A DNA stretch of 32,011 nt from Oscillatoria sp. CS-180 (GTDB lineage Bacteria > Cyanobacteriota > Cyanobacteriia > Phormidesmidales > Phormidesmidaceae), in contig NZ_JAQMUB010000001.1 in NCBI RefSeq assembly GCF_028330965.1, positions 1 through 32,011 on the forward strand, given 5' to 3'. The notes below the pieces were generated by a model. The model made no database searches. It worked only from the letters and a program-made list of their open reading frames with translations, and was not told the origin of the DNA. A program made the position numbers and the translations under genes. The stretch's first letter is position 1; every line of letters starts with the position of its first letter. This document shows positions 5,465 through 31,819 of this stretch, one piece after another.

Positions 5465-5620
5465 ATGCTCTGATTCAAGTGGCAAAGGGTCGCTAAGAAG
5501 CGATCTTTGACAAGACAGCAATCAGCATCCTCCAGTCAAAACGGGTTGAAAACCTTACACTTTGAGAGAAGCAATTTCAAAGGTAGTAGGGATTGTGCAG
5601 GGCGATCGCATTCAAGGAAC

Positions 5621-5779
5621 CTGGCTCCGGATATCGCCACTGCCCAGCGGCAGCAGGTAGAAGCCGCCGGACTGAACCAGATTCGCTTCGCCTGGGCCGG
5701 TGCTCTACAACCGCAGCAGGCCCACTACTATCGCTTACAGGGACCGTCGGTTTTGGTGGAGTACGACAATACCCAAAAC
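5621..5779 (+). pseudogene. Fragment of a DUF3500 protein
   Basis: Frame 2 encodes RFAWAGALQPQQAHYYRLQG followed by PSVLVEYDNTQN. This is the characteristic C-terminal block of DUF3500 proteins (FAWAG…HYYRIxGPxxLIEYDNTQN…HxHxVWRD). The conserved part that should follow (H-I-H…WRD) is missing. Nine bases later another frame begins WD40 homology, so a rearrangement joined the two around 5780-5787. The upstream portion of the domain is also gone. It is a non-functional remnant. Confidence 0.72.
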
Positions 5780-5787
5780 ACTACACT

Positions 5788-7653
5788 TTTGGTGGAATTC
5801 AATCTGTTGCATTCGACTCTGGAGGGGAACTGTTAGCGACCAGCGATAGTAAAGGGAAGATTCAATTATGGAAAGTCAGCGATCATTTACATATCGCTAC
5901 GCTTTCAGGACATTCTGGCAGAATAAGATCAATAGCCTTCAGTCCAAAAGATGAACTCCTTGTAAGTGCCAGTAGTGACTCTAGTATTCGACTTTGGGAT
6001 ATTCGTGGTAAACAATGTCTCCATATCTTTTCAGAGCATACCAGTCGTATTAGAGCATTAGCGTTTAGCCCAGACGGCAAAGTTATTGCGAGCGGAAGTG
6101 ATGATTTTACTATTAAACTATGGGACATTCAAAATAAGCGATGTCTCTATACCTTTTCAGAAGATATTAATCGAGTTAGAGCATTGGCGTTTAGTCCAGA
6201 TGGCGAACTTATTGCTAGTGGAGGCGATAGTTGCAATATTCAACTTTGGGATTTCAAAGATCGTGAATTCTTACATCTCTTATCAGGTCATATCAGGGGA
6301 GTTGCATCAGTAGCCTTTAGTCCTAATGGACGATATTTAGCTAGTGGAAGTGATGATTTCACTATTCGATTATGGGACATCAAAAGTCGAAAGTGTATCA
6401 GCATTCTTTCAGGGCACAAAGATCGAGTCAGAACAGTTGCTTTCAGCCCTGATAATCGGTTTCTTGCAAGTGGTAGCAACGACTTTACCATCCGCATATG
6501 GGATCTTCAAGAATGTAAGTGTTTGCAGGTCTTATCAGGTCATACCAATTGGATTAGATCGGTAGTGTTCAGTCCTGATGGAAACTTTATTGTTAGTGGG
6601 GGCAATGATTCTTCTATTCGCCTATGGAGTTTTAATAAACTTCGATGTTTTTACGTTCTTTCAGGGCATACAAATTGGGTTTACTCATTGGCAATTAGCT
6701 CCGATGGACATACTCTTGCTAGTTGTAGTGAAGATTCGACAATTTGGATTTGGGATCTTCAAAGCTTCAAATGTAAGCATGTCTTTTCTAAGCAGATCAA
6801 CTGGGCTTATTCCGTCGCATTTAGTCCAAATGGTCAAATTCTTGCTAGTGGTGCTGACAACTTCAATATTCGATTATGGGATCTCAACGACTATCATTTT
6901 CGTACATTATCAGGACATACAGATTGAGTAAGGGCAATAACTTTTCATCCCAATGAATATATTCTTGCTAGTGGTAGCAGTGATACAATGATACGTTTGT
7001 GGAACCTTCAAAACCAAGAATGTCTCTGCGTCTTTAAGGGGCATACTGATTGGGTCAGATCTTTAGTCTTCAATCCGAGTGGTCATATTATTGCTAGTGG
7101 TAGTGACGACACCACGATCCGTTTGTGGAATCTTCAAAGTCAAAAATGTTTCCATGTCTTTAGAGGACATAATGCTTGGGTTAGGTCAGTAGCATTCAGT
7201 CCAGATGGTCAATTTCTCGCTAGCGGTAGTGGTGATTCTACTATTCGTTTATGGAATCTTGAGGAACAAGAGTGTGCTCATGTTTTCTCAGAGCACAGTG
7301 ATGAAGTTAAATCAGTAGCATTTAGCTCAGATGGTCAAATTCTTGCTAGCGGAAGTGATGATCAAACAATTCGTCTTTGGAATCTTAAAGAACGACGATG
7401 CATTCGCATAATCTCCAAACATTCAGATACAGTTAGATCAGTAGCCTTTAGTCCAGATGGACAGACTTTGGCTAGTGGTAGTCACGATGAAACAGTGCGC
7501 CTGTGGAATATAGAAACAGGAGACTGCATTGCAGTACTACAAATTCCACGTCCCTACGAAGGGACCGACATTACTGGGGTACAGGGTTTGACGGAGGCGC
7601 AGCGGACGTCGATGCTAGCTTTGGGGGCGGTTGATTACTCCTTTGAAAGCTAG
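5788..7653 (+). pseudogene. 14-repeat WD40 array, interrupted by one in-frame TGA
   Basis: One frame encodes fourteen consecutive 41-42-residue WD40 repeats (…SVAFSPDG..LASGSDD.TIRLWD…LSGH), enough for two seven-bladed propellers. The end, RPYEGTDITGVQGLTEAQ, is the tail I associate with large cyanobacterial NACHT/NB-ARC-WD40 proteins, so this is probably the repeat part of such a protein with its ATPase half lost. In repeat 10 a TGA (6925-6927) stands where repeats 7, 8, 9 and 11 have TGG, and the frame resumes directly after it. Upstream, homology starts at about 5788 against a DUF3500 fragment, with no clear start codon. The part from ATG 6988 to 7653 could be translated alone but would not close a propeller. 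WD40 arrays act as binding platforms; no partner can be named. Confidence 0.8.
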
Positions 7654-19700: not shown

Positions 19701-20675
19701 ATGTCTAGAAAGTTGGAGCGATTACTTGCGATCGATGAGCTAATTCGCAAACCTGTACGACAAACTGCTTTGAGCTTAGCTAAAGCGCTAGAAGTCAGTG
19801 AACGAACAATCAGAGGAGACTTGGATTTTCTCCGAGATCGCTTTAGCGCGCCAATCGCCTACAGTCGTCGAAATGGTTATTACTTCACCGATCCCAACTG
19901 GCGCTTGCCCTCCATTCCTCTATCTCAGGGAGAATTGTTTGCGCTGACGCTAGGAGCACGAATGCTCTCAGCCTACAGTGGTTCGGCCTATCGAGAACAG
20001 CTTGAATCCGCGATCGAGCAGTTGGCAAAGCGACTGCCGGAGCAAACTTGGGTGGATTTACAGCAACTAACGGATGATTCGGTGATGTTTCGTCTAGGGG
20101 CTGAGCTGGATCTGAATCCGGAGGTTTGGCAGATTCTAGAGCAAGCTTGCCAACACCAACAACGGGTGTGGATTCGCTATGCCACGCCTGGGAAGCCTAT
20201 CTCTGAGCGGCAGCTAGACCCGTATGTGCTGCATTTCTCTCGGAACAATCCCTATGTGACAGGTTGGTGTCATACGCGGAAGGAACCTCGGTGGTTTCGG
20301 GTCGATCGCATCCAAACTATCGAGCTAATAGACGAAACCTTTAAAGTCGATCCCACCTTCGATCGCGAAGCCCATTTTGCCTCAGCGTTCCAGCACGAGG
20401 TGGGCGGCGTGCCACAGGAAATGCTGATTTGGTTTGACGTACCCACCGCGCCGTATATCCGAGAGCGGCGCTGGCACCCCACTCAGCAGATTGAAGAACA
20501 TCCGGACGGATCGCTTACGCTGCGGTTTGTAGTACGAGGACTGAATGAGGTAAAGCGGTGGGTGCTGTTTTATGGCAGAGGAGCCAGGGTGTTAGGACCG
20601 CCGCAGTTGGTGGCGATGGTACGGGATGAGGTCGAAGGTATGCAGAGCCATTATCAGCAGGGGGAAGGACAATGA
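19701..20675 (+). CDS. WYL-domain transcriptional regulator of the CRISPR-Cas operon, 324 aa
   Basis: An N-terminal helix-turn-helix (residues about 18-45, LAKALEVSERTIRGDLDFLR) is followed by a linker, a WYL domain at about 150-215 (VWIRYATPGKPISERQLDPY, then NNPYVTGWCHTRKEPRWFRV, DRI) and a C-terminal WCX extension (about 235-318). WYL proteins bind nucleic-acid-type ligands and often control defence operons. The stop codon overlaps the cas3 start (ATGA), so it is the first gene of the operon and its product is made together with Cas3. This implies feedback control of the locus. Activator or repressor cannot be told. Confidence 0.9.
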   Translation: MSRKLERLLAIDELIRKPVRQTALSLAKALEVSERTIRGDLDFLRDRFSAPIAYSRRNGYYFTDPNWRLPSIPLSQGELFALTLGARMLSAYSGSAYREQLESAIEQLAKRLPEQTWVDLQQLTDDSVMFRLGAELDLNPEVWQILEQACQHQQRVWIRYATPGKPISERQLDPYVLHFSRNNPYVTGWCHTRKEPRWFRVDRIQTIELIDETFKVDPTFDREAHFASAFQHEVGGVPQEMLIWFDVPTAPYIRERRWHPTQQIEEHPDGSLTLRFVVRGLNEVKRWVLFYGRGARVLGPPQLVAMVRDEVEGMQSHYQQGEGQ

Positions 20676-23401
20676 GGCAGCCGAGATTTTGGGCTAAGAC
20701 GGGTAAGGCAAAGTCTGAAAACGAGGAGCCGAGATACCATCCGGTAATTTGTCATCTAGCGGATACGGCAGCAGTGGCAATGGAGATTATTGAGCATCAT
20801 CTCAGCCCGATTGCAGTTCAGCGACTATGCGATGGTTTCGGTCTACCCAAAGAGTCGACCATTCGATTTTGCGGCTTTATGGCCGGGTCCCATGACTTGG
20901 GCAAAGTGAGTCCGGCTTTCCAGTTTCAAGTGAGTGACGTTGGGAAAGCATTAGTCGGAGATACCTTGTATGACTGTTGGTATCATTTGCCTCAAATTCG
21001 CCGTAAAAATAAAACACCACATGGTCTAGTCACAGCAGCCACATTGCCAGAGTTTCTGGTTGAATTGGGCGTTGGCGATACGCTGACTAAACGCCATGCA
21101 AAAAGATTAGCGAAGAAGCTAGCCATCATTGTGGGGGGGCATCACGGCTTTTTCCCAGCCAGTGAGGACATCAAGAATTTAGATGGTGCCTTAGCTGGTG
21201 TTGGAGAAAACAATATCTGGCGGCAACACAGCCTAGGGATATTTGAACAGTTGACAAGGTTTGTTGAACTAACAACAGAGGACTTGCCGAGTCAGTGTGA
21301 TAATGCAGCGGCAATGCTGTTAGCCGGATTAACGACAGTTTCGGATTGGCTAGCTTCGAATCCTGATGAAGAGTCTGGTTTTCCTTACGCTAACGACAAG
21401 CCATTCGGCGAGTACACAGCCGATTTACACGAAAAAGCAAAACGGGCTCTAGCGAAACAGGGATGGACTCACCATAAAGACGGTGATCCACTGACGTTTA
21501 CAGAATTATTTGGGTTTGATGACCCGAGGGACTTACAAAAAGCGGCGATCGCTCTTTCCTCAGAGCTTCAGCCACCGTGTCTGATCATGGTCGAAGCTTC
21601 GATGGGTGAAGGCAAAACGGAAGCAGCGCTCTATCTTGCGGACTACTTGCAACACCAGACTTCAGCCGGAGGGTTCTATATTGGCCTGCCAACCCAGGCT
21701 ACCAGCAACGCCATGTTCCAGCGAGTGCAGGACTTCCTGGGCAAGCGCTACAAGCAAGAGGTCATCAACCTGACGTTAAGCCATTCAGCCGCAGCGCTTA
21801 AAGAAGACTATCAGCAAACGATCTGTCGGCTGGAGCAGGTCTACGACAGTGAGAGCAAAGTCGTCGCCAGTGAATGGCATACCGCTCGCAAGCGATCGCT
21901 CCTAAGTCCCTACGGCGTTGGCACCATTGACCAAGGGTTAATGGGCGTAGTGCGATCTCGGCATCAGTTTGTGCGCCTGTTTGGATTGGCAGGGCGGACG
22001 GTCATTCTGGATGAAATCCACGCCTATGACCTCTATACCGGGACGCTATTGGAACGGTTCTTAGAATGGTTGGCGTTGCTGGGTTCTCCGGTCATCGCGC
22101 TTTCGGCAACCCTACCCAAAAGCACCCGTGAGGGTTTACTCGAAGCCTACGCCAAAGGTAGTCAAGATTCGGATGAGCCGGTTCCAGAGTTGCCGGAAAC
22201 CCAGTATCCCCGCATTACGGCATTTACCAACGGTACTGTTGTCACCCAATCGTTTCCAGCCTCTGGCCATGTTTGCCGAGATTTAGGCATCCATTGGGTC
22301 AAGGGCGATGACCAGGATAAAGAGTGGACTGACGCACTCAATACCAACTTAGAGCACGGAGGATGTGCGGCTGTTATTTGCTCGACGGTAGGGCGAGCAC
22401 AGAAAGTCTATGAATGCCTGAAACCTTACTTCACTCCTAAGAAAGAACTGGGGCTATTCCACGGTCGTTTCCTGTTTGCTGATCGCGAGGAGATTGAACA
22501 GGACTGTCTCGATATGTTTGGCAAAAAGGGTAAACGTCCTGAGAAGTATGTCTTAGTTGCCACGCAAGTGATCGAACAGAGTCTGGACGTTGACTTTGAC
22601 TTGATGATCAGTGATTTAGCCCCCATTGATTTACTGCTTCAGCGGTCGGGGCGGCTGCATCGACACAGTGGCCGGAAGCGCCCCCAAGCTGTAGATAAGC
22701 CTGTTTTGTGGATTGTTGAACCAACGATCAAGAGCCAGCAGAAGGCTGAATTTCGGGAGAGTGGCTACATCTACGATCGCCACATCCTGTTGCGGAGTTG
22801 GTTGGCGCTACAAGATCGCAATCAAATTCAACTCCCTGAAGAAACGGACAGCCTAATTGAGTCGGTTTATGACTTGGATGCCCCCATTCCAGACGGTCTA
22901 GAGCCTCTTTACCAAGAGGATTGGCAAGCTTCTCTAGCTGACTACCGAGCAGAAACCGAAGATTCCCACCGAGCCAGAGCAAATCAGGTCAAGTTACCCC
23001 CTGCTAGGAGCAATAGCAGCCCTGATCAATTAACCCGCCAGGGCGAAGAAGACGATGAATCGACCATTGCAGCGGTAACGCGACTAGGAGAGGAATCGGT
23101 CACCACAATCTTTCTTCAGCAAACGGCAGAGGGATTGCGCTTGCCTACTGGGGAGCATCAACTGATCAATCTGAACGTTCGGCCAACTTTACCAATAATT
23201 CGAGATTTGTTAGCCAACAGCACCCGCATTTCTAAGAAGCCCATTCTCAAAGAGTTGTTGAAACCACCTGATGGCTGGATATCAGCCCTGTTGAGGAATT
23301 GCCGCTATGTAGTGCTAAATGATGCGGGGGTAGCCGACTTAGGCAAATGGCTAGTGGTGCTAGACCCTCTCAAAGGGGTCGTGTTTCGCAAAAAGGATTA
23401 A
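20672..23401 (+). CDS. cas3: CRISPR-associated nuclease/helicase Cas3 (type I), 909 aa
   Basis: The HD nuclease domain is N-terminal: H28 in VICHLAD, HD at 74-75 in GSHDLGK, H117 in TPHGLV, and HH at 157-158 in VGGHHGF. The SF2 helicase follows: Walker A MGEGKT (K315), DEIH at 447-450 in VILDEIH, SAT at 478-480, and the motif VI segment LLQRSGRLHRH (Q657-R661). A C-terminal domain with DEDD-like charged linker ends the protein. All catalytic residues are present and the length fits. Cas3 is recruited by Cascade to degrade the non-target DNA strand. It overlaps the WYL gene and is followed by a gap of nearly 700 bp before cas8e. Confidence 0.97.
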   Translation: MRQPRFWAKTGKAKSENEEPRYHPVICHLADTAAVAMEIIEHHLSPIAVQRLCDGFGLPKESTIRFCGFMAGSHDLGKVSPAFQFQVSDVGKALVGDTLYDCWYHLPQIRRKNKTPHGLVTAATLPEFLVELGVGDTLTKRHAKRLAKKLAIIVGGHHGFFPASEDIKNLDGALAGVGENNIWRQHSLGIFEQLTRFVELTTEDLPSQCDNAAAMLLAGLTTVSDWLASNPDEESGFPYANDKPFGEYTADLHEKAKRALAKQGWTHHKDGDPLTFTELFGFDDPRDLQKAAIALSSELQPPCLIMVEASMGEGKTEAALYLADYLQHQTSAGGFYIGLPTQATSNAMFQRVQDFLGKRYKQEVINLTLSHSAAALKEDYQQTICRLEQVYDSESKVVASEWHTARKRSLLSPYGVGTIDQGLMGVVRSRHQFVRLFGLAGRTVILDEIHAYDLYTGTLLERFLEWLALLGSPVIALSATLPKSTREGLLEAYAKGSQDSDEPVPELPETQYPRITAFTNGTVVTQSFPASGHVCRDLGIHWVKGDDQDKEWTDALNTNLEHGGCAAVICSTVGRAQKVYECLKPYFTPKKELGLFHGRFLFADREEIEQDCLDMFGKKGKRPEKYVLVATQVIEQSLDVDFDLMISDLAPIDLLLQRSGRLHRHSGRKRPQAVDKPVLWIVEPTIKSQQKAEFRESGYIYDRHILLRSWLALQDRNQIQLPEETDSLIESVYDLDAPIPDGLEPLYQEDWQASLADYRAETEDSHRARANQVKLPPARSNSSPDQLTRQGEEDDESTIAAVTRLGEESVTTIFLQQTAEGLRLPTGEHQLINLNVRPTLPIIRDLLANSTRISKKPILKELLKPPDGWISALLRNCRYVVLNDAGVADLGKWLVVLDPLKGVVFRKKD

Positions 23402-23405
23402 TTCA

Positions 23406-23738
23406 ATGTCATTTCAATTTAAACGAACAGAGTCTTTATCTGGCAAGGGTTTTATCAGTGTCGCGTCACTTAGCTGGGTAGTTCTTAAGGCAGCGTTCGC
23501 AGAGGAATGGGTTGTCAAACAATTTTTGTCTGTGCTAGAGTCTCGTCATATTCCCCATGATGATGGGGGTGGTCCAGCAGCATTCGCAGGGGAAATACCT
23601 TTCCCCACAGCAGTGGGGGTATTCGTTCCGGGATATTTTCCCCTGCGAATGTACTGGGACAAAAAGTATTTTGTAGATCCTACCTCACTGAGCGAAAAAC
23701 GAATCTCGTCTCGGCAATTGCGCGAGATTAAATTTTAA
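23406..23738 (+). CDS. ORF of 110 aa directly behind cas3, of doubtful coding status
   Basis: The ATG lies 4 nt after the cas3 stop with AAGGA about 8 nt upstream, and the frame stays open for 110 codons. The product begins MSFQFKRTESLSGKGFISVA and ends SSRQLREIKF. Its middle (residues about 48-82) is specified by two CRISPR-repeat-like hairpins and a perfect 15-bp inverted repeat. That makes the amino-acid sequence there (HDDGGGPAAFAGEIPFPTAV) a likely by-product of RNA or DNA structure. I recognise no family. Either a short protein shares DNA with a regulatory RNA, or the frame is fortuitous. Confidence 0.35.
   Translation: MSFQFKRTESLSGKGFISVASLSWVVLKAAFAEEWVVKQFLSVLESRHIPHDDGGGPAAFAGEIPFPTAVGVFVPGYFPLRMYWDKKYFVDPTSLSEKRISSRQLREIKF
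23512..23541 (+). promoter_or_regulatory. Possible promoter for a small RNA in the cas3-cas8e gap
   Basis: TTGTCA (23512-23517) and TAGAGT (23536-23541) are separated by 18 nt. Transcription would begin about 23548, exactly where the first repeat-like element starts. Both hexamers are imperfect, so support is weak. Confidence 0.3.
23548..23576 (+). repeat. CRISPR-repeat-like element 1 (19 of 29 positions match the array repeat)
   Basis: The core TTCCCCATGATGATGGGGGT aligns without gaps to the array repeat. The stem is CCCCAT-GATG-ATGGGG where the array has CCCCAC-GCTT-GTGGGG: the sixth pair changed from C-G to T-A, preserving pairing. The eight bases corresponding to the crRNA 5' handle are GTGGTCCA versus GTGAACCG. 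Same orientation as the array and cas genes. Cas6e could recognise the hairpin if it is transcribed. Confidence 0.55.
23581..23651 (+). repeat. 15-bp perfect inverted repeat enclosing repeat-like element 2
   Basis: CATTCGCAGGGGAAA (23581-23595) and TTTCCCCTGCGAATG (23637-23651) are exact complements, 41 nt apart. Pairing continues inward with bulges. A local alternative, GGGGAAA-TACC-TTTCCCC, competes with the long stem, so two mutually exclusive folds are possible. The tip of the long fold carries the CCCCAC-AGCA-GTGGGG hairpin. Confidence 0.8.
23598..23626 (+). repeat. CRISPR-repeat-like element 2 (17 of 29 positions match the array repeat)
   Basis: The core TTCCCCACAGCAGTGGGGGT has exactly the array's stem (CCCCAC/GTGGGG) with a different 4-nt loop. 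Outside the hairpin the match is poor (handle GTATTCGT). It starts 50 nt after element 1, leaving a 21-nt spacer-like segment; true array units are about 63 nt. Confidence 0.55.
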
Positions 23739-23746
23739 GGCGGTAT

Positions 23747-24061
23747 TTGCTGGGGATGTTAAGGGGATTAGCTTGCCTGTCTACCAACAACAGTTCACTC
23801 GTACATTTCGTCTTGGACACAGTCACCGTATTTCAACTAAATATTTTTTCCGGCGAACCAGATTCCCTCCCTTTGAGAAGAAAGCGCAAATCAAGGGCAA
23901 CAACGACGTTTATCAAGACTTGTACGACCGAACAAGTAGCCATTCTGCTAGGCGTATCAACCTCCACTCTTTATCGGTCACGTCAAGCCGGTCAACCTTA
24001 TCGAAAAAACGATGGAATCGCTGAACCAATAAGCCCCAATTGTTGGCGGGTGATCTTTTAA
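23747..24061 (+). CDS. Small helix-turn-helix protein in the cas3-cas8e gap, start uncertain
   Basis: The C-terminal part of this frame encodes TTEQVAILLGVSTSTLYRSR, then QAGQPYRKNDGIAEPISPN and CWRV. That is a compact MerR/AlpA-like helix-turn-helix in which the recognition helix follows LLGVS and a short basic wing follows. The first 55 residues from the TTG at 23747 look unconvincing, so translation may begin later or the gene is a 3' remnant. It lies 26 nt before cas8e on the same strand. A DNA-binding protein here could regulate the Cascade genes or be a leftover excisionase-like gene. Confidence 0.4.
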   Translation: MLGMLRGLACLSTNNSSLVHFVLDTVTVFQLNIFSGEPDSLPLRRKRKSRATTTFIKTCTTEQVAILLGVSTSTLYRSRQAGQPYRKNDGIAEPISPNCWRVIF

Positions 24062-24087: not shown

Positions 24088-25623
24088 ATGACTTTTGATT
24101 TGACAACGAAACCCTGGATTCCAGTGGTTTTCGAAGATTTCCAACTAAGGGAAGTCTCCCTAATCGGACTGTTTGAATGCTGGAATGAGATGAAGGAAGT
24201 TCGCGGAGAAAATCCGCCGACCACCCTGGCCATCTACCGCTTCCTGCTGGCAATTTTGCATCGGGCCTACCAGGGACCAAAGGATGTCGATCATTGGGAA
24301 GAGATTGAGCAGGATGATGGTCAGGCGGCAATTGCCTACATAAAAGACCATACGAACTGCTTTGATCTGCTGCATCCAGAACGCCCCTTTCTGCAAGTTG
24401 CCTCCATCAGTCAAGAAGCAGCGGCAGAAATCTATCAAGCCTATGTTCTGCATGGCAATAACACCAGCACGGTCTTTTGTCATGAACACCAGTGGAGCGG
24501 CTCTTCTCTCTCGATTGAGGAAGCAGCTCGGCTAGTGTTGAGGCTGCACTGGTTTGATGTCGGGGGCCGTAAGACCGGGTCATCAATTTCCGCAGGGGTT
24601 ATTCCCACGATGGATGCGGCCAATGTCCTGGTCAGAGGTAACACTCTGAAGGAAACGTTGCTGTTGAATCTGATGCAGTACAACCCGCCAAAAGAAATTC
24701 CGAGTGTAGTGAACGGTGAGGATCTACCAGCCTGGGAGCGGGAGTCGACAGCAGCAGTAGAACGCATCCCTAATGGATACATTGATTACCTGACCTATCA
24801 ATGGCGGCGGGTACGGCTGTTTTTTGAAGGAGATCGCGCCGTCAATGTGGCTTTTCATGGAGGAGATCGCATTCCCAAAGATGTTTCTACCAGCCAGTGG
24901 GAATGTGGCGTCGCCTATCACAAAACTAAGAAGGGACTCTTTACCGTTCGCTTGAACTTAAGTCGTTCTCTTTGGCGTGATTCGACCGCATTTTTACAGT
25001 CTTCGGATGTGGGCGAACGGCCTCGCATCGTTAGTTGGGTGGCTGAATTGCAAGAAGATGAGTTCGCTGACGAGCGGTTGAGCTTGCAGGTGTTGGGACT
25101 ATCCGTCGATAATGCCAAGCCCCTGGGCTGGAGTAGCGAAGACTTTTCTGCTCCCATGCTTTACCTCAAAGACAAGCCCCTGTGGGATGCCTTGAAGTCA
25201 GCAGTTCAGGCGGCGGAAGATCATCAGAATGTCTTCCGGTCGTTCCGAGGGAGTCCGTACCATGCTCTGGCTGAAGTGCTTAAACATGGCGATGTCGGAG
25301 CGTTGGCCCAAGCCCTAGATGGCGAATCCCGCTACTGGTCGGCCCTTGACCAGGCTTTTCCAACCTTACTCTTACAGCTCCCAAAGGATGATGCGACCGG
25401 AGCCGATGGCAGCCTCACCTATGGCAACCAGGTTCTACCGGAATGGACAAAAACCGTTCAGAAAGTCGCAACTGATGCCTTTACTGAGTCGATCGCCTCC
25501 ATTCGGAACTATGAGGCCCGGGCGGCTGCTTTACGATCGCTCAGCTATCACTTGGCGAAATTGCGGGGCGACATCCAGCCCAAAGCGAAGAAGGGAAAGA
25601 AGGCTACGGCCAACGTCAGATAG
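24088..25623 (+). CDS. cas8e: Cascade large subunit Cas8e (Cse1/CasA), 511 aa
   Basis: The N-terminus FDLTTKPWIPVVFEDFQLRE is typical of Cse1, followed by ENPPTTLAIYRFLLAILHRA and the DLLHPERPFLQVA segment. The mid-region HWFDVGGRKTGSSISAGVIP and the strand RLFFEGDRAVNVAFHGGDRI follow. The C-terminal part (about residues 370-500) is helical, forming the four-helix bundle that contacts Cse2, with a basic tail (KPKAKKGKKA). Cas8e reads the PAM, opens target DNA and recruits Cas3. It is the first gene of the Cascade block, 26 nt behind the helix-turn-helix ORF; no clear separate promoter is visible. Length fits the family. Confidence 0.95.
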   Translation: MTFDLTTKPWIPVVFEDFQLREVSLIGLFECWNEMKEVRGENPPTTLAIYRFLLAILHRAYQGPKDVDHWEEIEQDDGQAAIAYIKDHTNCFDLLHPERPFLQVASISQEAAAEIYQAYVLHGNNTSTVFCHEHQWSGSSLSIEEAARLVLRLHWFDVGGRKTGSSISAGVIPTMDAANVLVRGNTLKETLLLNLMQYNPPKEIPSVVNGEDLPAWERESTAAVERIPNGYIDYLTYQWRRVRLFFEGDRAVNVAFHGGDRIPKDVSTSQWECGVAYHKTKKGLFTVRLNLSRSLWRDSTAFLQSSDVGERPRIVSWVAELQEDEFADERLSLQVLGLSVDNAKPLGWSSEDFSAPMLYLKDKPLWDALKSAVQAAEDHQNVFRSFRGSPYHALAEVLKHGDVGALAQALDGESRYWSALDQAFPTLLLQLPKDDATGADGSLTYGNQVLPEWTKTVQKVATDAFTESIASIRNYEARAAALRSLSYHLAKLRGDIQPKAKKGKKATANVR

Positions 25624-27437: not shown

Positions 27438-28055
27438 ATGGCGACCCTACTCATGCGGTTTCGTGCCCCGATGATGAGTTGGGGCGACCACAGCCGCTTC
27501 ACCATTCGCGATAGCCGCCGCGAACCCACCAAATCCGCTGTTATTGGCCTGCTCTGTGCCGCCCTTGGACGACCCCGCTGGGAGCCCGTCAATGACCTTA
27601 CTGCCCTCAAAATGGGCGTCCGCATTGATAAACCTGGCGCCATCCAATGCGACTATCACACCGTTATGGATGGGATCAAATCGGGTGGTGGTAAAGGTGG
27701 CACTGTGATTAGCCATCGTTACTACATTGCCGATGCAAACTACCTGGTGGGACTGGAGGGAGATCGCGCCAAACTAGCTGATGTAGATGCTGCCCTTCAA
27801 GCTCCCTGCTGGCAACTTTACTTTGGTCGCAAGAGCTTTGTCCCTAGCTGGCCAATTCATATCCCTGAAGGTCTGGTTGCAACTGATTTGGAAACTGCTC
27901 TGAAAGGGCATGATCCACCTCCAGGCAAATTGGAATACATCCTAGAGGTGCCTAACAGTCCTGATGTGCGCCAAGACGTACCTTTAGACTGGCAACGCCG
28001 TCTCTTTGCCAGCCGTTGTGTAGATACTCAATTTTTTCCACTGGAGGTTACCTAA
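27438..28055 (+). CDS. cas5e: Cascade subunit Cas5e (CasD), 205 aa
   Basis: LLMRFRAPMMSWGDHSRFTI and PTKSAVIGLLCAALGRP are the signature of Cas5 N-termini. GGKGGTVISHRYYIADANYL and YFGRKSFVPSWPI complete the RAMP domain and its thumb. Cas5e caps the crRNA 5' handle. Start and stop lie 2 nt from the neighbours on both sides, showing tight translational coupling. The C-terminal end is RLFASRCVDTQFFPLEVT, complete for the family. Confidence 0.95.
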   Translation: MATLLMRFRAPMMSWGDHSRFTIRDSRREPTKSAVIGLLCAALGRPRWEPVNDLTALKMGVRIDKPGAIQCDYHTVMDGIKSGGGKGGTVISHRYYIADANYLVGLEGDRAKLADVDAALQAPCWQLYFGRKSFVPSWPIHIPEGLVATDLETALKGHDPPPGKLEYILEVPNSPDVRQDVPLDWQRRLFASRCVDTQFFPLEVT

Positions 28056-28057
28056 CC

Positions 28058-28681
28058 ATGTACCTCTCTAAGCTACTTCTAAATTCTCAAAAGACTTTTG
28101 TACTGCGTGAACTGGGCAACGCCCACAAGTTTCATCAACGCATCATGCAGGCATTCCCTGATGAAGATAGCCGCGATCGCCCTCGTGAAGACTGGCACGT
28201 TCTTTTTCGCCAAGAACCTGATAGTGATGTGGTGCTGGTGCAGTCGGAGATTGAACCAGATTGGACAAAATTGCCCGATTTGTACTTGCGGCATTACGCC
28301 ATCAAAGCAATGAGTTTAACGGCAGAGTCTCTCTCAGCCAGTCCTATCTTCCAGTTTCGCCTTCGGGCTAACCCTAGCAAGCGAGACAACAAAACCAAGA
28401 AGATCATCGGCTTTTACCATCGCTCTGATCAACTGGCCTGGTTAGAGCGACAGGGCGATCGCTGTGGGTTCCGTTTACTTAATCCCGATGTCATCCCATC
28501 TCCTAGTGTCTTTGGCATTAAGAAAAAAGGTACTGCTCCCATTCGCATCACTACTGCTCTCTTTCAAGGTGTTTTAGAAGTTACCGCCTCCGAATTATTT
28601 TTATCTGCTGTCCAACTCGGGCTAGGGAGAGGTAAATCCTATGGGTGTGGATTACTGTCTTTGGCTCGAATCAGAACATAA
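28058..28681 (+). CDS. cas6e: crRNA endoribonuclease Cas6e (Cse3/CasE), 207 aa
   Basis: Starting at the ATG 28058, behind a GGAGG, the protein begins MYLSKLLLNSQKTFVLRELG. The helix NAHKFHQRIMQAFPDED carries the probable catalytic His26 (H23 is a less likely alternative). The Gly-rich loop near the C-terminus, GLGRGKSYGCGLLSL, is typical of Cas6. It should cut each repeat transcript at the base of the CCCCAC/GTGGGG hairpin, leaving an 8-nt GUGAACCG handle. It may also bind the repeat-like hairpins between cas3 and cas8e. Confidence 0.94.
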   Translation: MYLSKLLLNSQKTFVLRELGNAHKFHQRIMQAFPDEDSRDRPREDWHVLFRQEPDSDVVLVQSEIEPDWTKLPDLYLRHYAIKAMSLTAESLSASPIFQFRLRANPSKRDNKTKKIIGFYHRSDQLAWLERQGDRCGFRLLNPDVIPSPSVFGIKKKGTAPIRITTALFQGVLEVTASELFLSAVQLGLGRGKSYGCGLLSLARIRT

Positions 28682-29911: not shown

Positions 29912-31819
29912 GTTGTCCCCACGCTTGTGGGGGTGAACCGGTTCTGTAATCTACATTCGTTGCGAGGATTCGGAGTTGTCCCCACGCTTGTGGGGGTGAA
30001 CCGTTTAGGCCACTAGAACTCTGGGATGGTGATTGAGTTGTCCCCACGCTTGTGGGGGTGAACCGCCAGTGCCCTGCATGGCAGCGATCGCAGCTGATAG
30101 TTGTCCCCACGCTTGTGGGGGTGAACCGTGAGCGCGCTGAACATCGGTATTTTGCGTATCCGTTGTCCCCACGCTTGTGGGGGTGAACCGCCGGTATGCT
30201 CTTAACAATCAATTGGAGTCATCGTTGTCCCCACGCTTGTGGGGGTGAACCGACGCTGCCGCCGCGCTGGATGGACTGTCTCAGCGTTGTCCCCACGCTT
30301 GTGGGGGTGAACCGCTGTTGAATTGTCTAAGCAAATTTCAGCAAGGCAAGTTGTCCCCACGCTTGTGGGGGTGAACCGAGACAATGCAGAAGAGAAAGCC
30401 CTCTCTTGATCCGTTGTCCCCACGCTTGTGGGGGTGAACCGAATCTTTTAACAAATCTCAGCAACGGGCCGCTGAGTTGTCCCCACGCTTGTGGGGGTGA
30501 ACCGCCCTGCCAGCGGGCAGCAGATGAAACCATCTGCAGTTGTCCCCACGCTTGTGGGGGTGAACCGTCTCATACGATAACGGAGAGCCAGTCATTGATC
30601 AGTTGTCCCCACGCTTGTGGGGGTGAACCGTCAGTACATTCGGGATAAAAGCGCTGGTTTATCCGTTGTCCCCACGCTTGTGGGGGTGAACCGCCCAGTA
30701 GCGCGTGAGAGCAACTCCACCTTGCGTTGTCCCCACGCTTGTGGGGGTGAACCGGCAGATTTAGTGAACTCGGCAGCCCCACCGTTGCGTTGTCCCCACG
30801 CTTGTGGGGGTGAACCGAGCTAGTTCATGTGCGACGGGTGCTCAAAATCGGTTGTCCCCACGCTTGTGGGGGTGAACCGAGACGGTGCTGAGAAGCTATG
30901 TCGGCAACCCTCAGTTGTCCCCACGCTTGTGGGGGTGAACCGGACGTCAGCTTTGTTGATGTCTCCCAGGTCATCGTTGTCCCCACGCTTGTGGGGGTGA
31001 ACCTTACTAAGTAGTTGAGTGCAGCGATAGATCATGTCGTTGTCCCCACGCTTGTGGGGGTGAACCGGGATATTGTTGGAAAACGAGTTGCTAGCTAAGG
31101 CGTTGTCCCCACGCTTGTGGGGGTGAACCGGTGCCCGGTCGCTCCGACTGGAGATTGCTGCTGCGTTGTCCCCACGCTTGTGGGGGTGAACCGTCTGTAA
31201 GTCATCAAAACGAGCAAGGAGAGCTAGTTGTCCCCACGCTTGTGGGGGTGAACCGCGTAATTTGGGTGATGGGGTGACACTTAGGGTAGTTGTCCCCACG
31301 CTTGTGGGGGTGAACCGAAGAACTCCTCAACACTGATCCGTCTTTGTGGGGGTTGTCCCCACGCTTGTGGGGGTGAACCGGCGGCAATGTATTTGTTTGA
31401 CAAACATTGCGCTGGTTGTCCCCACGCTTGTGGGGGTGAACCGTTTCAATGAACTTGAGGATTACGTACGACGGCTCGTTGTCCCCACGCTTGTGGGGGT
31501 GAACCGCTGAACAGCCTCGGCAGGATGTCGTCAGAGTAGCGTTGTCCCCACGCTTGTGGGGGTGAACCGTACAGCCGCCTGAAACTCGGCTTCGGTAATC
31601 AATGTTGTCCCCACGCTTGTGGGGGTGAACCGTACTATGCAGTAGTCGGAGTGGCTGGGGAATTACGTTGTCCCCACGCTTGTGGGGGTGAACCAGTAAA
31701 GATCACTGAGTGCGGCGGTGAAGAAATAGTTGTCCCCACGCTTGTGGGGGTGAACCGTTCAGGCGTCGGAAACCAAATCTTGAGGATGCGGTTGTCCCCA
31801 CGCTTGTGGGGGTGAACCA
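29912..31819 (+). CRISPR. Type I-E CRISPR array, 31 repeats and 30 spacers
   Basis: The 29-nt repeat begins GTTGTCCCCACGCTTGTGGG and ends GGTGAACCG. Its stem is CCCCAC/GTGGGG with loop GCTT. It reads in the cas-gene direction, giving the 5' handle GTGAACCG. By my count, spacers are 34 nt (18), 33 nt (10), 32 nt (1, 30694-30725) and 35 nt (1, 30315-30349). The repeats are identical except for the last base: T in the copy at 30976-31004, and A in those at 31667-31695 and 31791-31819. The degenerate last copy suggests that the right end is leader-distal. All units are distinct, so the array was fed by many acquisitions. Confidence 0.98.

What the first reader, a model, noticed from the sequence alone, without database searches (positions are those of the whole stretch)
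23548..23651. CRISPR-repeat-like hairpins inside the cas3-cas8e gap: candidate crRNA-like regulatory RNA
Two elements on the cas strand align gap-free with the array repeat at 19/29 and 17/29 positions. Both keep a six-pair stem and 4-nt loop; element 1 has swapped a C-G pair for T-A, a compensatory change that suggests selection for the structure. Element 2 keeps the exact stem and sits inside a 15-bp perfect inverted repeat. Cas6e cutting both would release an RNA of about 50 nt with a 21-nt guide-like segment (23577-23597). Elsewhere, crRNA-like RNAs inside cas operons (such as CreA in archaeal type I-B creTA) guide Cascade to repress a promoter and keep cas genes linked. That analogy is inference; the hairpins and covariation are seen.
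Basis: partly seen in the sequence, partly recalled or inferred. Interest (0 to 1): 0.8.

Follow-up and report, generated by a model that had tools for sequence, protein, structure and literature searches.

The report
Guide RNA that regulates CRISPR genes
Between two genes of a cyanobacterial CRISPR immune system lies a tiny degenerate CRISPR unit whose guide matches a nearby promoter-like region, so the immune complex probably uses it to turn down its own production; such circuits are known elsewhere, and this looks like a cyanobacterial example.

Summary
The two hairpins are real and form a degenerate mini-CRISPR (psiR1 23548-23576, guide 23577-23597, psiR2 23598-23626). Its target is also there: 87 nt upstream, after an AAG PAM, 23490 matches the guide at positions 1-5, 7-13 and 15-18. 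PAM plus seed occurs once in the 6.5-Mb genome. The site overlaps a predicted promoter that would start transcription at psiR1. Of 23 type I-E loci examined, 7 have this unit, two of them found later on named plasmids (Acaryochloris marina, Synechococcus elongatus). In 7 of 7 the best guide match in the cas3-cas8e gap carries AAG. Matches are 7 of 7 at positions 1-5, 7-11 and 13, but 2 of 7 at 6 and at 12, which Cascade is known not to read; guides fit their own targets better than any of 5039 other pairings. Most likely this is a CreR-type crRNA-like RNA by which Cascade represses the mini-CRISPR/cas8e promoter. A CreTA-type toxin role is not excluded. Stem covariation is not above shuffles. 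RNA, binding and repression are untested. New member of a known kind.

The parts
23487..23521 (+). Target 1: PAM AAG (23487-23489) and protospacer from 23490 (32-nt footprint to 23521)
   Evidence: Guide match at positions 1-5, 7-13, 15-18; best of all gap positions, any PAM, both strands; PAM plus 1-5/7-11 occurs once in the genome
23512..23541 (+). Predicted promoter TTGTCA-N18-TAGAGT with TGC before the second hexamer; start of transcription expected near 23548
   Evidence: Consensus scan, 9 of 12 (2 sites found in the region against 1.0 in shuffles, so not significant alone). TGNYANNNT lies between target and psiR1 in 5 of 5 loci, a pattern drawn up after viewing them
23548..23576 (+). psiR1, degenerate repeat; stem 23553-23558/23563-23568, 8-nt handle GTGGTCCA 23569-23576
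   Evidence: 19/29 to the array repeat by direct count
23577..23597 (+). psiS, 21-nt guide segment
   Evidence: Lies between the two psi-repeats; matches target 1
23598..23626 (+). psiR2, degenerate repeat; stem 23603-23608/23613-23618
   Evidence: 17/29 to the array repeat by direct count
23637..23651 (-). Antisense copy of guide positions 5-19; right arm of the 15-bp inverted repeat
   Evidence: third-best guide match in the gap, on the minus strand, without seed
23737..23755 (+). Possible target 2: AAG and GCGGTATTTGCTGGGG; seed mismatches at 3 and 5
   Evidence: Second-best site in the gap, 10 of 13; sites at similar places in G127 (12 of 13) and A. marina (12 of 13), also AAG
23813..24061 (+). 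Possible small helix-turn-helix gene (TTG start proposed from the G127 relative)
   Evidence: 47% identity over 78 aa to the G127 frame; HTH matches below Pfam cut-offs
23406..23738 (+). 110-aa open frame across target 1 and the psi-array, probably not a gene
   Evidence: no family hit; best match elsewhere is the psi-array of G338
20672..23401 (+). cas3
24088..25623 (+). cas8e (cse1/casA), presumed regulated gene
28016..28681 (+). cas6e, presumed processing nuclease
   Evidence: Pfam CRISPR_assoc, E 3.5e-47
29912..31819 (+). CRISPR array, parent repeat of the psi-repeats

Best explanation
A degenerate two-repeat mini-CRISPR in the cas3-cas8e gap makes a crRNA-like RNA of the CreR type. Inferred steps: transcription starts just before psiR1; Cas6e cuts after both stems and frees an RNA of about 50 nt with an 8-nt 5' handle, a 21-nt guide and the psiR2 hairpin; Cascade takes it up and binds target 1 over the -35 of the same promoter. 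The match, limited to the first 18 positions, and the short guide would hold Cascade there without Cas3 cutting. This represses the mini-CRISPR promoter and read-through into cas8e, so Cascade limits its own supply; a second AAG site nearer cas8e may add to it. When array crRNAs or an anti-CRISPR occupy Cascade, repression would ease. Shown by sequence: psi-repeats, guide, PAM-flanked target, their recurrence and co-variation in 7 loci. Inferred: promoter, processing, binding, repression, release.
For: Psi-repeat scores far above background. Target with AAG in the window, PAM plus seed unique in the genome. Of 23 loci examined (the window, 20, 2) 7 have the unit; in 7 of 7 the best gap match carries AAG, 1 of 4,482 mock guides reaches 12 of 13 with AAG. 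Read positions 86 of 91 matched, permuted mean 52.9, no other of 5040 pairings reaches 86 (next 84); positions 6 and 12 match 4 of 14, no more than between loci (37%). PAM-free, mask-free ranking gives the same site in 5 of 5. In 4 of 7 loci (G041, G268, G338, S. elongatus) cas8e is the only Shine-Dalgarno-led or large + strand frame seen after the unit. Layout as in CreA (PMC8501985); 21-24-nt guides repress without cutting in type I-B (PMC10989794).
Against: No RNA, binding or expression data. The promoter prediction is not significant alone (2 found, 1.0 expected). The guide is paired with its antisense copy in the predicted fold of the precursor, which might hinder processing. Target lies upstream of psiR1 in 6 loci but downstream in S. 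elongatus. Sixteen of 23 loci lack the unit, so it is not needed for type I-E. AAG as PAM was not confirmed from array spacers.
Confidence: 0.78

Rival explanations
1. CreTA-type addiction module: the same guide RNA is an antitoxin (CreA), and the gene repressed by Cascade is a toxin in the gap (an unseen small RNA or peptide, the helix-turn-helix frame, or BrnT in relatives), so that loss of Cascade harms the cell.
For: A type I-E CreTA lies in the cas3-casA gap of Citrobacter rodentium (PMC12055562, passages). BrnT lies divergent from the unit in G041, G268 and G338. An HTH frame follows target 2 in the window and G127.
Against: The HTH frame of A. marina has in-frame stops although both targets are kept. 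The window has no BrnT match. G041, G268, G338 and S. elongatus show no small SD-led frame between unit and cas8e, but that criterion also misses cas8e itself in 5 of 7 loci, so it is weak.
Confidence: 0.14
2. Relic: a decayed mini-array with a chance or old self-matching spacer and no present function.
For: Repeats are degenerate; 16 of 23 loci lack the unit; the window's second site has seed mismatches.
Against: Guide and target change together between loci at read positions and not at 6 and 12; chance gives 0.07 such hits per 20 regions against 5.
Confidence: 0.05
3. The repeated TTCGCAGRGGAA motif is a set of protein operators (for instance for the WYL regulator), and the hairpins are a terminator or attenuator.
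For: Three related motif copies within about 160 bp; a WYL gene adjoins cas3; psiR2 scores as terminator-like (1 found, 0.8 expected).
Against: The motif differs from locus to locus while guide and target stay matched; one copy follows a repeat-like handle and the other follows AAG in 7 of 7; WYL genes also adjoin cas3 in loci without the unit.
Confidence: 0.03

Closest known systems
CreR, cas-regulating RNA from mini-CRISPRs in types I-B, I-E and V-A (Liu et al. 2023, doi 10.1016/j.chom.2023.08.005; not held; known here from passages in PMC13131331, PMC12737573 and PMC12948488 and from recall)
   Same: crRNA-like guide in the cas locus, limited complementarity to a promoter of the cas genes, no dedicated toxin evident in the window
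   Different: Here proven only by sequence; the promoter hit in 6 of 7 loci is the one before the mini-CRISPR itself, with a second AAG site before cas8e in 3; whether cyanobacterial cases are in that paper could not be checked
CreA of CreTA, type I-B haloarchaea (PMC8501985, abstract and first part of Results read)
   Same: Two divergent psi-repeats, guide positions 1-5 and 7-11 match a PAM-flanked promoter site
   Different: CreA represses an RNA toxin lying before it; here no such toxin is seen and the PAM is AAG
CreTA of Citrobacter rodentium type I-E (PMC12055562, passages)
   Same: Same subtype and same cas3-casA gap; partial match beside a type I-E PAM, near promoter elements
   Different: There a 96-bp toxin frame is repressed and the guide lies on the opposite strand; here the guide is on the cas strand

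Membership tests
CreR | Degenerate repeats outside the array flanking a spacer-like segment, in the cas locus | tested here: met
CreR | Limited guide complementarity to a PAM-flanked site at a promoter of cas genes | tested here: inconclusive
   PAM-flanked partial match met in 7 of 7; that the site is a working promoter of cas8e is predicted only
CreR | RNA is made and processed by Cas6 | not testable with these tools
   cas6e is present; no RNA data
CreR | Cascade with this RNA represses cas expression | not testable with these tools
   needs a reporter or mutants
CreTA | A toxin gene repressed by Cascade through the guide RNA | tested here: inconclusive
   No BrnT match in the window; HTH frame of unknown role, broken in A. 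marina; small toxins cannot be excluded
Canonical CRISPR array | Near-identical repeats at the array's spacing | tested here: not met
   19/29 and 17/29 to the array repeat; spacing 50 against 61-64 in the array

The most novel reading that the evidence does not exclude
A two-site Cascade circuit: one guide RNA holds Cascade both on its own promoter and on a second AAG site before cas8e, an antisense copy of the guide in the leader tunes it, and in relatives with BrnTA the same bound Cascade also restrains a protein toxin, so that one mini-CRISPR joins autorepression (CreR) and addiction (CreTA).
Probability: 0.15. Interest if true: 0.75.

Novelty: new member of a known kind. Interest (0 to 1): 0.58.

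Why it matters
It gives 7 diverged loci in which a crRNA-like guide and its promoter target have changed together at the bases Cascade reads and drifted at those it skips: evolutionary evidence that Cascade serves as a transcription regulator in cyanobacteria. One locus is in Synechococcus elongatus PCC 11802, recorded as an axenic culture, where it could be tested. It also suggests why some of these operons have a long cas3-cas8e gap, and how to find such units: degenerate repeats plus an AAG-flanked partial match.

Tried and rejected
Dispersed element: the 701-bp gap has no other match in the own genome beyond short ones (best E 0.6). Rfam: one sub-threshold match, inside the array. Stem covariation: not above shuffles. 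PAM from spacers: three arrays against phage records gave one phage (two records, E 0.01) for the window's array and nothing for the other two, so AAG rests on the target sites and on general knowledge of type I-E. Viral contigs: no Cas8e relative. A scan for AAG targets over whole loci was swamped by array repeats, its output was cut, and it was not used. Order-level searches around G041, G268, G127 and the window, and a phylum sample, gave no Cas8e locus beyond those. In the Cas8e tree the unit-bearing loci do not form one group (20 rows; G076 and the two plasmid loci not in it); loss and transfer cannot be told apart.

Rows left out: of the 23 class genomes with a Cas8e match, G038 and G315 were not fetched because cas8e is cut by the contig end. 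G076 (broken cas8e) was left out but is. One region had only 114 bp and one 704 bp upstream. S. elongatus IITB6 was not opened; its match has the same length and identity as PCC 11802. BrnT and HTH were searched by tblastn in the window and the 20 loci, not in the two plasmid loci. Single repeat-like hits of score 16 in G150 and G333 lie inside cas3 and have no partner.

Full report
What is there. The window carries a type I-E operon: WYL regulator 19701-20675, cas3 20672-23401, cas8e 24088-25623, cse2, cas7, cas5, cas6e 28016-28681, cas1, cas2, then an array from 29912. The 686-bp cas3-cas8e gap holds the two elements described. Identity to the array repeat is 19/29 and 17/29 by direct count; stems and loops are as stated; starts are 50 nt apart (61-64 in the array). 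Outside the array, TCCCCA-N6-TGGGGG occurs on the + strand of the window only there. On the 25 non-loop positions both elements score 17, a score reached by 3 of 309,211 + strand positions outside the gaps and arrays of 21 loci.

The target. Read as a mini-CRISPR, the guide is 23577-23597, GCAGCATTCGCAGGGGAAATA. A direct repeat of it lies 87 nt upstream, at 23490, straight after AAG. It matches at positions 1-5, 7-13 and 15-18, with mismatches at 6 and 14. AAG plus positions 1-5 and 7-11 occurs once in the 6.5-Mb genome, with no hit of the backward control. The site covers the first hexamer of a predicted promoter, TTGTCA-N18-TAGAGT, 23512-23541. That scan found 2 sites against 1.0 in shuffles, so it is weak alone. 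A TGNYANNNT element lies between target and psiR1 in 5 of 5 loci, against 6-12% expected for one such segment, but the pattern was drawn up after seeing them. psiS itself is preceded by CCA, not AAG, so the unit should not target itself.

Relatives. Cas8e was found in 23 of 388 sampled genomes of the class, the window's included. Twenty further loci were fetched; two genomes with cas8e cut by the contig end were left out. A scan for AAG plus a 1-5/7-11 repeat in up to 1,500 bp upstream of cas8e gave hits in 5 of 20 regions: the window, G041, G268, G338 and G127. The expectation in first-order random sequence is 0.07 for the set. The same five hold the paired psi-repeats. In the 21 loci they are those with a long gap before an intact cas8e (666-845 bp). 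Thirteen loci have gaps of 285 bp or less and no paired psi-repeats; of the other three one has a broken cas8e, one lacks cas3 on its contig and one has another gene order.

Two later loci. Cas8e in the plasmid collection matched 11 records, 3 of them over at least 80% of its length. I opened two of these three and both have the unit. In Acaryochloris marina pREC1 (Cas8e 79% identical, gap 597 bp) the psi-repeats are 50 nt apart, with AAG|GTAGCATTGGCAG upstream and AAG|GTAGCATTTGCTGGGG downstream. In Synechococcus elongatus PCC 11802 (gap 348 bp) one psi-repeat was scored by the script; further hairpins with a GTCAGTGGG arm follow it by eye. Its guide TAGATTGCTTGGG has the target AAG|TAGATAGCTTGCG between the unit and cas8e. 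The first scan, which looked only upstream of the guide, had missed this.

Tests over the 7 loci. Scored on positions 1-15 less 6 and 12, over the whole gap and both strands, with no PAM asked for, the best site carries AAG in 7 of 7. In A. marina the best is the downstream site (12 of 13) and the upstream one is second (11 of 13). In the window (10 of 13) and G127 (12 of 13) the second-best site also carries AAG. These extra sites lie 348, 372 and 346 nt before cas8e in the window, G127 and A. marina. The window's has seed mismatches at 3 and 5, so its use is doubtful. Of 4,482 other gap positions used as mock guides, 32 reached 12 of 13 and 1 of these had AAG. Matches per position were 7 of 7 at 1-5, 7-11 and 13, 6 of 7 at 15, and 2 of 7 at 6 and at 12. 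Positions 1-5 and 7-11 were part of the first search, but a ranking on all 15 positions without PAM returned the same site in 5 of 5 loci. Guide and own target match at 86 of 91 read positions; the mean over 5040 pairings is 52.9, and only the true pairing reaches 86 (the next is 84). At positions 6 and 12 the match is 4 of 14, no better than between loci (37%). That type I-E Cascade leaves every sixth guide base unread, and that AAG is a type I-E PAM, is general knowledge and comes from no call.

Literature. In type I-B CreA, positions 1-5 and 7-11 pair with a PAM-flanked site before the toxin, and two divergent psi-repeats are common (PMC8501985, abstract and first part of Results). Guides of 21-24 nt repress without detected cleavage or priming in type I-B (PMC10989794, abstract and passages). 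The window's guide is 21 nt, as in G338 and A. marina; G268 and G127 have about 32-33 nt. CreR mediates autorepression in types I-B, I-E and V-A (PMC13131331, one passage; PMC12737573, passages). A type I-E CreTA sits in the cas3-casA gap of Citrobacter rodentium (PMC12055562, passages). The CreR paper is not held. In the listings I saw no report of such a unit in a cyanobacterium; these are capped listings of one open library, and the cyanobacterial defence review among them (PMC12840210) was not opened.

Mechanism. What the 7 loci share is an AAG target next to the start of the mini-CRISPR (6) or between it and cas8e (1), so autorepression of the Cascade operon is the best reading. CreTA is less likely. 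Four of 7 loci show no small Shine-Dalgarno-led frame between unit and cas8e, though that test also misses cas8e itself in 5 of 7. The HTH frame of A. marina has in-frame stops although both targets are kept. BrnT is divergent and found in G041, G268, G338 and in G076, which lacks the unit; the G041 pair passes the Pfam cut-offs for BrnT and BrnA. Its place next to the target leaves room for a double role.

Limits. No RNA, binding or expression data. Stem covariation is not significant. The fold of the unit alone is unremarkable in the window, though that of G127 is strong (z -3.85). The long inverted repeat, whose right arm copies guide positions 5-19 in antisense, would pair with the guide in the precursor; its purpose is open. 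The 110-aa frame is probably not a gene.

Noticed in passing
window 5593-7653: A long 126-nt repeat region (13 register copies 5923-7514), WD40-like from recall, runs through two same-frame ORFs (5593-6927 and 6988-7653), so the gene seems to be interrupted by an in-frame stop.
   Followed up: no
L058, L059, L060, L074 (cas3-cas8e gap): BrnT toxin genes (with BrnA confirmed in L058) sit in the gap on the opposite strand; a brnA-like fragment seems to remain in L057 by eye.
   Followed up: partly
L074 (G076:C172): cas8e is broken (only residues 91-221 and 342-511 match) and the psi-array is absent while brnT is kept; the contig length equals that of a Nodosilinea sp. LEGE 07088 contig.
   Followed up: partly
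L077/L080 (Acaryochloris marina MBIC10699 pREC1): The closest Cas8e relative found (79%) lies on a plasmid typed as conjugative, which fits horizontal movement of this operon; the best chromosomal or contig relatives are 67%.
   Followed up: partly
window 23637-23651; L072 gap, 465 nt before cas8e: An antisense copy of the middle of the guide follows the unit in the window and in G127, so the guide could be paired in the precursor RNA.
   Followed up: partly
L078 2470-2625: The S. elongatus gap shows two further hairpin-like GTCAGTGGG elements after psiR1, so it may hold more than one guide.
   Followed up: no
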